Positions 5,374 through 18,793 of a stretch of 64,000 bases of DNA are shown here, piece after piece (position 1 is the first letter of the stretch; each line of letters opens with the position of its first letter). The notes beneath the pieces are model-generated. The model did not search any database and was not told the DNA's origin. It was given only the letters and a program-made list of their open reading frames with translations. Origin of the DNA: a virus; the IMG/VR virus record IMGVR_UViG_3300049460_000196, positions 49,104-113,103 of that record; one strand, written 5' to 3'. The position numbers and the translations under genes are program-made.

Positions 5374-5436
5374 CTGCTACTCCGTGTTCGTTTATCTTGT
5401 TCCTATTATAGGCGTAGATGAACAAACAATCAAGTA

Positions 5437-5649
5437 TTAGTCACGTTTGTTTGCCAGTTCGTTCAACTGTTTGCTGAGGTCGGCGTCGGTTTCGGCGGTG
5501 ATCACGCCCAGCTTAACCATGTTGTTCATGGTACCACGATACACTTCAAACTCGCGGTTATCGAACGACTCAACCATCACGTGCTCGCGACCAGTGTCGC
5601 TGTCGAAGGTGTCGTAGTTGTGTTTGATCTGCGCGTTGATGATATACAT
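5437..5649 (-). CDS. Small hypothetical protein
   Basis: 70 residues, acidic. No family recognised. Its promoter region resembles that of 5140-5373 (both upstream areas contain TATAATAGG/TATAATG before AACA-type bases), suggesting separate similar promoters. Confidence 0.65.
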   Translation of the reverse strand: MYIINAQIKHNYDTFDSDTGREHVMVESFDNREFEVYRGTMNNMVKLGVITAETDADLSKQLNELANKRD

Positions 5650-5712
5650 GGTCGCTCCTGCATTTGTGTAGAATCACATTATAGACGCAGATGAACAGAA
5701 AATCAAGTAATA

Positions 5713-5812
5713 TTTGGTGGACCAGAGCGGAATTGAACCGCCACGACGTCGCGAACGTCTTTCCCAGTGCGGAGGACTTGTACTCACCTGAGTAGCCCAG
5801 CGAAGCACCAAT
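5713..5812 (-). tRNA. tRNA-like element, 3' half intact, 5' half unclear
   Basis: CCA, acceptor 3' strand CTGGTCC, T-arm GGCGG-type/CCGCT and an anticodon-like hairpin with loop TTCGCGA (CGC, Ala-like). No matching 5' acceptor strand (GGACCAG or wobble form) was found downstream, so the gene is either decayed or interrupted. Confidence 0.35.
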
Positions 5813-5823
5813 ACATGATGCTT

Positions 5824-5970
5824 TGGTGGACTATGGGGACTCGAACCCCCTCTCCCTGGCCCGTAATGATCAGCCTCGTGGGGCTTGTCCCACAATCTCC
5901 GCCATTAGATGTAGCGGTGCTGAATCACGCTTCTGAAGCTACTCGCTTGAAGCCGATCATTACGAGCGAC
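5824..5970 (-). other. tRNA-like 3' end joined to a structured element
   Basis: CCA, acceptor-like ATAGTCC and T-loop TTCGAGT in a G/C stem, but the T-stem has only four clean pairs and no 5' acceptor partner is seen. The region to about 5966 holds a 10-bp inverted repeat (CGTAATGATC at 5861 and its complement at 5957) and the hairpin GTGGG/CCCAC. Decayed tRNA or an unknown RNA. Confidence 0.3.
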
Positions 5971-17325: not shown

Positions 17326-17402
17326 TGGTGGACAAGACCAGGAATCGAACCCGGCTTCCTCCGCCCTACTTCCAAGGCGACTGATTAGCGGATCACTTGC
17401 CC
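17326..17402 (-). tRNA. Non-canonical tRNA, probably Ser(GGA)
   Basis: CCA, acceptor GGGCAAG/CTTGTCC, T-arm CCGGG/CCTGG with one extra base before the acceptor. The anticodon hairpin is irregular: stem CGCC/GGCG encloses TTGGAAG, giving GGA with T33. Confidence 0.55.
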
Positions 17403-17408
17403 AATGAC

Positions 17409-17494: not shown

Positions 17495-17553
17495 GGATGC
17501 CATTCTTTGGTTTTCGGAAAAGGAAAATTTAGAAAGGTTTGCTGTTGGCATCC
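17495..17553 (-). other. Arm-poor tRNA-like element, motif GGATGC-ACAGCAA
   Basis: 59 nt closed by GGATGCC/GGCATCC, starting with GGATGCCAACAGCAA; one central hairpin carries CCGAAAA (GAA, Phe-like). No T-arm and no CCA. Related by its start to elements at 22831-22886 and 51699-51764. Confidence 0.35.
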
Positions 17554-17559
17554 AAAACT

Positions 17560-17616
17560 TGGTAGGATAAGTCAAGTATTCCCTTTGGCGGGGAACGTAG
17601 TTTATCAAACTTATCC
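17560..17616 (-). other. Arm-poor tRNA-like element, CCA-type anticodon
   Basis: 57 nt: acceptor-like GGATAAG/CTTATCC ending in TACCA, hairpin TTCCC/GGGAA with loop CGCCAAA (CCA, Trp-like, G at 33), and no T-arm. Possibly a minimal or decayed tRNA. Confidence 0.35.
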
Positions 17617-17621
17617 AAAAC

Positions 17622-17706
17622 TGGTACCCTGGGCGAGACTCGAACTCGCAAACCTTACGGCACATGGACCTGAACCATGCGTGTCTTCCAATTCCACCAC
17701 CAGGGC
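17622..17706 (-). tRNA. tRNA-Leu(CAG), third copy
   Basis: Class II, CCA, acceptor GCCCTGG/CCAGGGT, anticodon stem CATGG/CCATG, loop TTCAGGT. Confidence 0.9.
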
Positions 17707-17955
17707 ATTACTGTATTACTATCAAGTCGCGTGCTGCTACGCCAAAGGAGAGCTGCCCATACGCCGCCCAAGACGACTTTTGGCTACATGCTTCTATCAA
17801 CATTTATCCCTGCCACATCACCATTCTATACCACCACTAGGGTTCGGCATTATGGCATTTCGCGGCTCGGGTGCTTCGCTCCACTCATTAAGGATGGCTG
17901 CTTCTAAGCCAACCACAAGCTTGACTCAAGTACCTGACTGGCTGTCAGGATTTGG
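17707..17955 (-). ncRNA. RNA element with 23S GTPase-centre stretch
   Basis: About 250 nt without a convincing gene. The minus strand contains GACAGCCAG, a 22-nt insert, then TTGGCTTAGAAGCAGCCATC (17893-17912). Both occur in this order in E. coli 23S rRNA before and in helix 43 of the GTPase-associated centre, the L11/thiostrepton/EF-G site. The helix 44 sequence is not conserved. Further 3' it holds ATGCCGAAC and a 58-nt element closed by AAGTCG/CGACTT. Candidate rRNA-derived or mimicking RNA. Confidence 0.6.
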
Positions 17956-17960
17956 AGAAA

Positions 17961-18036
17961 TGGTAGTTCCTGACGGGTTCGAACCATCGACATCCACTTT
18001 GTAAGAGTGGCGCTCTACCAGCTGAGCTAAGGAACC
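17961..18036 (-). tRNA. tRNA-Val(TAC)
   Basis: CCA, acceptor GGTTCCT/AGGAACT, anticodon stem CCACT/AGTGG, loop CTTACAA. Confidence 0.92.
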
Positions 18037-18124: not shown

Positions 18125-18793
18125 TTACGGAAACTTCATCTTTCGACCAAGCTTCCAATTTCGAGAAAGCCACAAATCAATGTCTTCTCGATTTATCTTT
18201 ATCGTGCGCTTTTCTATTTCAGAAAATATCCACATAGTGCCATACTGCGAGTTACCAGTACCGCGTGCGCTTTTTGATACGTTATCTCCAATTTTCTTCT
18301 TGGTTTCTTCGGTATGATTTTTACCTTTAAAACTGGGAGGCGGCGTGCCTGGTAAATTGGCTATGCCTGCTGATGATCTATTGGTTTTTGTTTGTTTTGC
18401 CCATTCGGGGTCATTATCTCTCAACCATTGCTGCCTTTGTTGACTGATCTTATTCTTGGCAGTTTGACGACATGAATCGGCATTAATGATATTGTTAGGC
18501 CAACTGCTACCACCTAAAGATATGTTCATACACATCGGATCAGTTAGCATTTCGGCACACACCAATTCTGCTTCGCGTTCTCTCAACCACTCCCTACTGA
18601 AGTAATGCTCGAGAATCGCACATACGTGATTTTCCTTACCGTGAACATTAACTGATCGCCCAAGCAGTTTGCCAGAACCAATATAACCGTCATTCAGGTC
18701 ATAAGTGCTGTGCATACCCAAGTAATATTTTCCAGTCACAATGCACGTGGTGCGATATATGTAATGATACTGTCTGTTGGTCATATCCGCCAT
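18125..18793 (-). CDS. GIY-YIG homing endonuclease
   Basis: 222 residues. GIY-YIG core YHYIYRTTCIVTGKYYLGMHST, then DDGYIGSGKLL-type motif (DGYIGSG) and catalytic Glu in REREAELV; the NUMOD3 repeat FKGKNHTEETKKKIGDN follows near residue 160, and the C-terminus resembles a DNA-binding tail. Lies between two tRNA-His genes, ending 10 bases from one of them, as expected for an endonuclease that has homed into the tRNA array. Confidence 0.88.
   Translation of the reverse strand: MADMTNRQYHYIYRTTCIVTGKYYLGMHSTYDLNDGYIGSGKLLGRSVNVHGKENHVCAILEHYFSREWLREREAELVCAEMLTDPMCMNISLGGSSWPNNIINADSCRQTAKNKISQQRQQWLRDNDPEWAKQTKTNRSSAGIANLPGTPPPSFKGKNHTEETKKKIGDNVSKSARGTGNSQYGTMWIFSEIEKRTIKINREDIDLWLSRNWKLGRKMKFP

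What the first reader, a model, noticed from the sequence alone, without database searches (positions are those of the whole stretch)
17893..17912. Exact 20-nt copy of the 23S rRNA GTPase-associated centre in a phage intergenic RNA
The minus strand reads TTGGCTTAGAAGCAGCCATC, the helix 43 hairpin of 23S rRNA (loop including A1067, E. coli numbering) where L11, thiostrepton and EF-G/EF-Tu act. Upstream is GACAGCCAG, which precedes this hairpin in 23S, here separated by a 22-nt insert. Helix 44 is not kept. A chance 20-mer is very unlikely. It lies between tRNA-Leu and tRNA-Val on the same strand, so it should be co-transcribed and processed with tRNAs. It could bind L11 or translation GTPases and tune translation or the stringent response (inference).
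Basis: partly seen in the sequence, partly recalled or inferred. Interest (0 to 1): 0.93.

Follow-up and report, generated by a model that had tools for sequence, protein, structure and literature searches.

The report
Phage RNA copying a ribosome domain
Many bacterial viruses carry, among their tRNA genes, a small RNA that rebuilds the ribosome domain where protein L11 and the energy-using translation factors dock, with a variable extra arm grafted in; this points to an unrecognised way for a virus to influence its host's protein synthesis.

Summary
The 20-nt match is real and is part of something larger. In fact 17721-17925 (minus strand) rebuilds the whole 58-nt GTPase-associated centre (GAC, E. 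coli 23S 1051-1108): h42, h43, the 1082-1090 strand and the h44 loop. A 29-369 nt domain is inserted between positions 1090 and 1091. I found 238 copies (176 non-redundant), with none in reversed-sequence control. They occur in viral contigs, in isolated phages (pf16, GAP32, CBB, BF, XacN1 and others) and in some bacterial assemblies. Covariation is strong (92.5% of cells paired versus 33-54% in slid controls) and includes the 1082-1086 pair and a helix closing the insert. Of 487 nearby tRNAs, all are on the same strand. Rfam has no such family and my literature searches found none. Best explanation: a free-standing phage RNA, processed from the tRNA transcript, that mimics the GAC and binds host L11, perhaps to blunt RelA or retune translation. 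The identity as a GAC-fold RNA family is near certain; L11 binding is inferred. A few long inserts also carry a sarcin-ricin-loop hairpin, the other half of the ribosome's factor-binding centre.

The parts
17721..17925 (-). Whole GAC-mimic RNA element (205 nt)
   Evidence: h43, h44 loop and P1 in register with 176 non-redundant relatives
17915..17925 (-). P1 5' arm (counterpart of 23S h42 5' strand), one bulged C at 17919
   Evidence: pairs with 17721-17730; pair probabilities 0.66-0.81
17892..17914 (-). h43 hairpin including A1067 in the loop, identical to the bacterial LSU consensus
   Evidence: Rfam LSU alignment, 23 identical positions
17883..17891 (-). Counterpart of 23S 1082-1090 (TTAATGAGT), one base shorter than in most relatives
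   Evidence: GAGU is invariant where the J region has standard length; the short form is shared with L025, L039, L058, L123, L136, L137, L164
17743..17882 (-). Variable insert between 23S positions 1090 and 1091, including P4 and the TTTG linker
   Evidence: insert length 29-369 nt, median 142, in relatives
17879..17882 (-). P4 5' strand, closing the insert
   Evidence: pairs with 17747-17750; covarying in 137 relatives, 89% versus 52% shuffled
17747..17750 (-). P4 3' strand
17743..17746 (-). Linker TTTG, near invariant in the family
   Evidence: T, T and G in 174, 171 and 166 of 176
17731..17742 (-). h44 loop and its 3' side (G1091 to C1102; GCGUAGCAGCAC, includes A1095)
17721..17730 (-). P1 3' arm (counterpart of h42 3' strand)
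17961..18036 (-). tRNA-Val(UAC) upstream in the same array
   Evidence: ARAGORN, Rfam
17622..17706 (-). tRNA-Leu(CAG) downstream in the same array
   Evidence: ARAGORN, Rfam

Best explanation
The element is a free-standing phage RNA gene. It is transcribed with the phage tRNA array, cut out by tRNA 5' and 3' processing, closed by P1, and folds into the ribosomal GTPase-associated centre with a variable domain branching from h44 (fold and location shown; processing inferred). The most likely action is binding of host ribosomal protein L11 (uL11), the ligand known to bind the isolated 58-nt GAC RNA tightly (general knowledge). Held by a stable phage RNA, L11 would be withheld from ribosomes or brought to the insert domain. 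Ribosomes lacking L11 cannot activate RelA, so a likely benefit is a blunted stringent response while the phage, with its own tRNAs, drives translation. Shown: a widespread, covarying GAC fold in phage tRNA arrays. Inferred: L11 binding (about 0.5), sequestration as the purpose (about 0.35), the RelA link (about 0.25).
For: Full GAC architecture in exact register, with covariation including the 1082-1086 tertiary pair and an insert-closing helix. An independent 3'-motif scan recovers the h43 hairpin. 238 elements, none in reversed control. tRNA-array location, 487 same-strand tRNAs versus 0 opposite. Core positions (U1060, A1077, A1085, G1087-U1090, G1093, U1094, A1098) invariant while the exposed apex (A1067, U1097) drifts, the pattern expected of a folded L11 platform rather than of a thiostrepton or elongation-factor contact. 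[quoted passage not shown]
Against: No expression or binding data. Energy-based folding of the window copy alone prefers another pairing for h43 and P4. The h44 insert could hinder L11; no complex model could be made. Elements were found through near-consensus motifs, so invariance of the motif positions is partly by selection (partly controlled). The large variable insert is not explained by L11 binding alone.
Confidence: 0.5

Rival explanations
1. The GAC module is only a structural clamp. Phages adopted a stable, tertiary-folded rRNA domain to close and protect the RNA, and the variable insert is the effector; L11 binding is incidental or absent.
For: The insert is large, variable and carries its own recurrent modules; fold positions are kept while exposed apex positions drift.
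Against: The sequence is kept much more strictly than a clamp needs, for example unpaired A1077 and A1085.
Confidence: 0.22
2. Decoy for a host factor, toxin or defence protein that recognises the ribosomal GTPase-associated centre (or, in the long-insert forms, the sarcin-ricin loop), sparing ribosomes during infection.
For: Mimicry of a ribosomal hot spot, phage tRNA-array context, and RNA-repair enzymes encoded beside two copies (L187, L195).
Against: No nuclease or defence protein acting on the GAC is known to me; A1067 and 1096-1097 drift.
Confidence: 0.15
3. L11-tethered effector: the RNA uses L11, or the L11/L10-L12 stalk, to bring its insert to ribosomes or translation factors and so favour phage translation.
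For: Conserved GAC plus variable insert on a three-way junction in h44.
Against: The L11 site for RNA is already occupied in intact ribosomes (general knowledge).
Confidence: 0.1
4. Cis-acting leader, like a ribosomal-protein leader, that controls the next gene.
For: r-protein leaders mimic rRNA sites (general knowledge).
Against: About 40 of 176 copies run straight into a tRNA gene, and the next gene differs between phages.
Confidence: 0.02
5. Chance match, or a decaying scrap of 23S rRNA picked up by the phage.
For: Only h43 is obvious in the window alone; the Rfam score is below threshold.
Against: Extensive compensatory change; recurrence in unrelated phages; a shared insert site and A1101 that the 23S sequences compared do not have.
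Confidence: 0.01

Closest known systems
GTPase-associated centre of bacterial 23S rRNA (h42-h44, nt 1051-1108)
   Same: Same helices in the same register, same loop sequences, and the same 1082-1086 tertiary pair, kept by covariation
   Different: Free-standing, no other 23S sequence, own closing helix, a 29-369 nt insert between 1090 and 1091, A1101 instead of U1101, in phage tRNA arrays
GOLLD and ROOL RNAs
   Same: Structured non-coding RNAs of phages and prophages, often near tRNA islands (PMC12286853)
   Different: No Rfam match to either in the window or in seven related phage loci; they are larger, and no rRNA mimicry is described in that paper's passages read
OLE RNA
   Same: Proposed to sequester a ribosomal protein, RpsU, in a ribosome-like pocket (PMC12286853)
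   Different: Unrelated RNA; a small-subunit protein; no match here
Ribosomal-protein leader RNAs (e.g. L10 leader)
   Same: Mimic an rRNA protein-binding site (general knowledge)
   Different: They sit in cis before r-protein genes; this one stands among tRNA genes
Phage T4 rnaC and rnaD
   Same: Small stable RNAs inside a phage tRNA cluster
   Different: No GAC motif in their sequence

Membership tests
GAC fold (h42-h43-h44 of LSU rRNA) | h43 hairpin with its loop sequence | tested here: met
   identical to the LSU consensus in the window; 99.4% of cells paired in 80 sequences
GAC fold (h42-h43-h44 of LSU rRNA) | h42 counterpart in register | tested here: met
   P1 85.4% of cells paired, all 10 pairs with two-sided changes
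GAC fold (h42-h43-h44 of LSU rRNA) | h44 with GCGUAAUAGC-type loop | tested here: met
   100% of cells paired, though mostly invariant so no covariation; recovered independently from h43-only loci
GAC fold (h42-h43-h44 of LSU rRNA) | 1082-1086 tertiary pair | tested here: met
   UA 42, CG 24, AU 8, other 6
GAC fold (h42-h43-h44 of LSU rRNA) | binds L11 | not testable with these tools
   needs a binding assay
23S ribosomal RNA gene or fragment | flanking 23S sequence and Rfam gathering score | tested here: not met
   13.6 bits against 50; no other 23S in these loci
Ribosomal-protein leader | precedes a ribosomal-protein gene in cis | tested here: not met
   followed by tRNA-Leu in the window; by tRNAs or varied hypothetical genes in relatives
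GOLLD / ROOL | match to the Rfam model | tested here: not met
   no match in the window or in seven related loci
GOLLD / ROOL | phage or prophage RNA near tRNA islands | tested here: met
   109 of 176 elements have a tRNA within 1.5 kb, all same strand
T4 rnaC/rnaD | sequence relation | tested here: not met
   T4 stretch read and scanned, no GAC element

The most novel reading that the evidence does not exclude
The family is an RNA mimic of the ribosome's whole factor-binding centre. All members copy the GAC, and a long-insert subclass (L019, L158, L223, L258, L312) adds a sarcin-ricin-loop hairpin (mostly UAGUACGRRAGGA, on five different stems), so that one small phage RNA presents both rRNA elements that translational GTPases and RelA use, acting on these factors off the ribosome.
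Probability: 0.2. Interest if true: 0.97.

Novelty: categorically new. Interest (0 to 1): 0.93.

Why it matters
No phage RNA that copies a ribosomal domain in trans turned up in Rfam 15 or in the open literature searched. If it binds L11, it is a direct RNA handle by which phages could control ribosome stalk assembly, translation factors or the stringent response. It would give a testable answer to why large phages keep RNAs inside tRNA arrays. It occurs in phages already in culture (pf16, GAP32, CBB, BF, XacN1), so it can be tested soon. It also gives a natural set of GAC variants with compensatory changes, useful for RNA structure work.

Tried and rejected
GACAGCCAG lead-in: rejected, part of a local hairpin outside the element and not kept in relatives. 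Coding gene: the + strand ORF 17507-18004 runs antisense over two tRNAs, so it is not credible. Rfam: only sub-threshold LSU hits. T4 rnaC/rnaD as relatives: no. Inserts as general further rRNA mimics: blastn-short of inserts against the E. coli rrn operon is little better than shuffled overall (1201 versus 1107 hits); only the SRL hairpin stands out (6 hits in 45 kb of element versus 7 in 1,021 kb of flank). Own promoter or terminator: TATAAT upstream in 10/174 (control 2.9%) and a T-run after P1 in 17/175 (control 2.5%), so only a minority look self-contained. Energy-only folding does not by itself predict P4. Plasmid hits were taken to be genuine rRNA operons and not followed. Literature: searches gave no report of a phage GAC mimic; the library is open-access PMC only.

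Full report
CHECK OF THE OBSERVATION. The 20-mer lies at 17893-17912 on the minus strand, once in the window, between tRNA-Val and tRNA-Leu of a phage tRNA array of about 50 tRNAs. The window is a phage: PHROGs finds tail and structural proteins and a homing endonuclease. The record is a 113,103-base viral contig. Rfam's LSU model matches 17892-17914 with 23 identical positions, 13.6 bits, E=0.044 in a 401-base search, below the gathering score.

RECURRENCE. The exact 20-mer occurs in 78 viral contigs. Only one of these is true 23S; two phage records that hold host 23S were set aside as well. The rest show the hairpin, then usually TTTAAAGAGTG or a variant, then unrelated sequence. Reading on for about 100-400 bases shows a second conserved block, CTTTGGCGTAAYAGCACAC, followed by a strand complementary to the bases just before h43. 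This is the h44 loop and the other side of h42. Numbered by E. coli (my numbering from the known A1067 position), the phage RNA has P1 ending at pair 1055-1104, then 1057-1081 to 1059-1079, 1062-1076 to 1064-1074, 1087-1102, 1090-1101, 1091-1100 and 1092-1099: the 58-nt GTPase-associated centre, interrupted between 1090 and 1091. Joining the two sides gives GAGU-GCGUAAUAGC, the continuous 23S sequence of many bacteria (compare).

INDEPENDENT TESTS. Scanning viral contigs with the 3' block alone gave 94 stretches. In nearly all new ones an h43-like hairpin lies 55-395 bases upstream, some with compensated stems (GGG..CCC, GGA..UCC), whereas random 600-base stretches mostly reach only 6-9 mismatches. 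On 80 distinct spliced sequences (alignment A1) 92.5% of pair cells form standard pairs versus 33-54% when slid; 15 of 21 pairs have two-sided changes; none of 500 shuffles reaches the observed covariation score. The tertiary pair 1082-1086 appears as UA (42), CG (24) and AU (8). The insert is closed by a further helix, P4: 88.9% paired versus 51.9% shuffled. A detector requiring h43, the h44 loop and P1 finds 238 elements in 237 loci and none in the same DNA reversed (2.87 Mb). Non-redundant: 176, insert 29-369 nt, median 142.

DISTRIBUTION. Phages of culture with the full element include Pseudomonas pf16, UNO-G1W1, Astolliot and Milchi, Aeromonas 4_4572, Xanthomonas XacN1 and XbC2, Cronobacter GAP32, Pectobacterium CBB, Serratia BF and Erwinia Kaldavass, with two-part BLAST matches in the Erwinia SNUABM phages. 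None of the regions viewed annotates it. In 84,980 bacterial and archaeal genomes the 3' block occurs 25 times, 17 with an h43 upstream, including assemblies named Flintibacter muris, Clostridiaceae strain 9 and D16-76. These look like prophages or phage contigs; only L187 was looked at, by eye. Within 1.5 kb, 109 of 176 elements have tRNAs, 487 on the same strand and none on the other. The nearest upstream tRNA often ends 14-20 bases before U1060, and the nearest downstream tRNA often begins 30-40 bases after the start of the 3' block.

THE WINDOW COPY. P1 is 17915-17925 with 17721-17730, one bulged C; h43 17892-17914; GAGT 17883-17886; P4 17879-17882 with 17747-17750; linker TTTG 17743-17746; h44 loop 17731-17742. 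It fills 205 of the 254 bases between the tRNAs. Energy folding supports P1 (0.66-0.81) but not h43 or P4 on its own, so the case for those helices rests on the relatives. This copy belongs to a subgroup with one base fewer before GAGT (also L025, L039, L058, L123, L136, L137, L164).

HOW IT PROBABLY WORKS. From general knowledge, the isolated 58-nt GAC RNA binds ribosomal protein L11 tightly and binds thiostrepton, while translation factors contact the apical loops only in the ribosome. In the phage RNAs the core positions U1060, A1077, A1084, A1085, A1088 and G1089 are fixed or nearly so, whereas exposed apical positions drift: A1067 is A in 84/103 of the elements found without reference to it, and U1097 is U in 33/67. 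That pattern fits an L11 platform better than a drug or factor mimic. L11 is needed for RelA activation (PMC4974054). A phage that brings its own tRNAs could gain from ribosomes that do not call the stringent response. The binding, the sequestration and the benefit are inference. The clamp and decoy rivals are listed with their tests.

THE INSERT. About a fifth of inserts share CACCCC-loop-GGTAAG next to P4 (36/176 versus 1 in shuffled). Five non-redundant long inserts share a hairpin, mostly UAGUACGRRAGGA, on five different stems and at a similar place; [quoted passage not shown] coli UAGUACGAGAGGA). GAC and sarcin-ricin loop together are the ribosome's factor-binding centre. Either these RNAs mimic both, or the sarcin-ricin hairpin is a common RNA module reused; I cannot tell.

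NOVELTY. Rfam 15 has no such family. Nine searches of open-access PMC found no report; subscription papers and preprints were not searched. GOLLD and ROOL show that tRNA islands of phages hold large structured RNAs (PMC12286853), but none known to me copies a ribosomal domain. Verdict: a real, widespread RNA family, categorically new in kind as far as these sources show, with an inferred mechanism.

Noticed in passing
L019, L158, L223, L258, L312 (inserts of 307-351 nt): A sarcin-ricin-loop-like hairpin (mostly UAGUACGRRAGGA on five different stems) inside the insert of the GAC-mimic RNA; 6 hits in 45 kb of element versus 7 in 1,021 kb of flank.
   Followed up: partly
Inserts of 36 of 176 elements, e.g. 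L081, L083, L088, L180: Recurrent module CACCCC-(GTAAC/GGAGAC/AGAAA)-GGTAAG at the 3' end of the insert, next to P4 (1 in shuffled); function unknown.
   Followed up: partly
L092, L115, L125, L127, L135, L138, L140, L143, L145, L148: Second insertion, usually starting with a hairpin, between A1077 and the 1078-1090 strand, in addition to the usual one; L143 has two tandem elements.
   Followed up: partly
L187:2522-4714 and L195:1330-1980: RNA-repair enzymes close to the element: a kinase-phosphatase-RNA ligase protein downstream in the Flintibacter muris assembly and an RNA ligase just upstream in phage XacN1. Might fit tRNA-damage countermeasures; only two cases.
   Followed up: no
window 18125-18793 (-): Homing endonuclease gene inside the tRNA array, between two tRNA-His genes.
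   Followed up: no
window 17328-17405 (-): tRNA-like stretch (acceptor GGGCAAG/CTTGTCC, T-arm, CCA) that neither ARAGORN nor Rfam calls; perhaps a damaged or unusual tRNA.
   Followed up: no
window 5435-5914 (-): ARAGORN reports a permuted tmRNA here; Rfam does not support it at its gathering score, so it is probably spurious.
   Followed up: no
phage records such as OR845016, MZ092003, KM209255, CAKLQF020000045: Several deposited phage records carry genuine host 23S rRNA, which looks like host DNA contamination.
   Followed up: partly
L193:5067-5084 region: A Propionibacterium MAG contig holds the insert module and the h44 block but no recognisable h43; a truncated or diverged copy.
   Followed up: no
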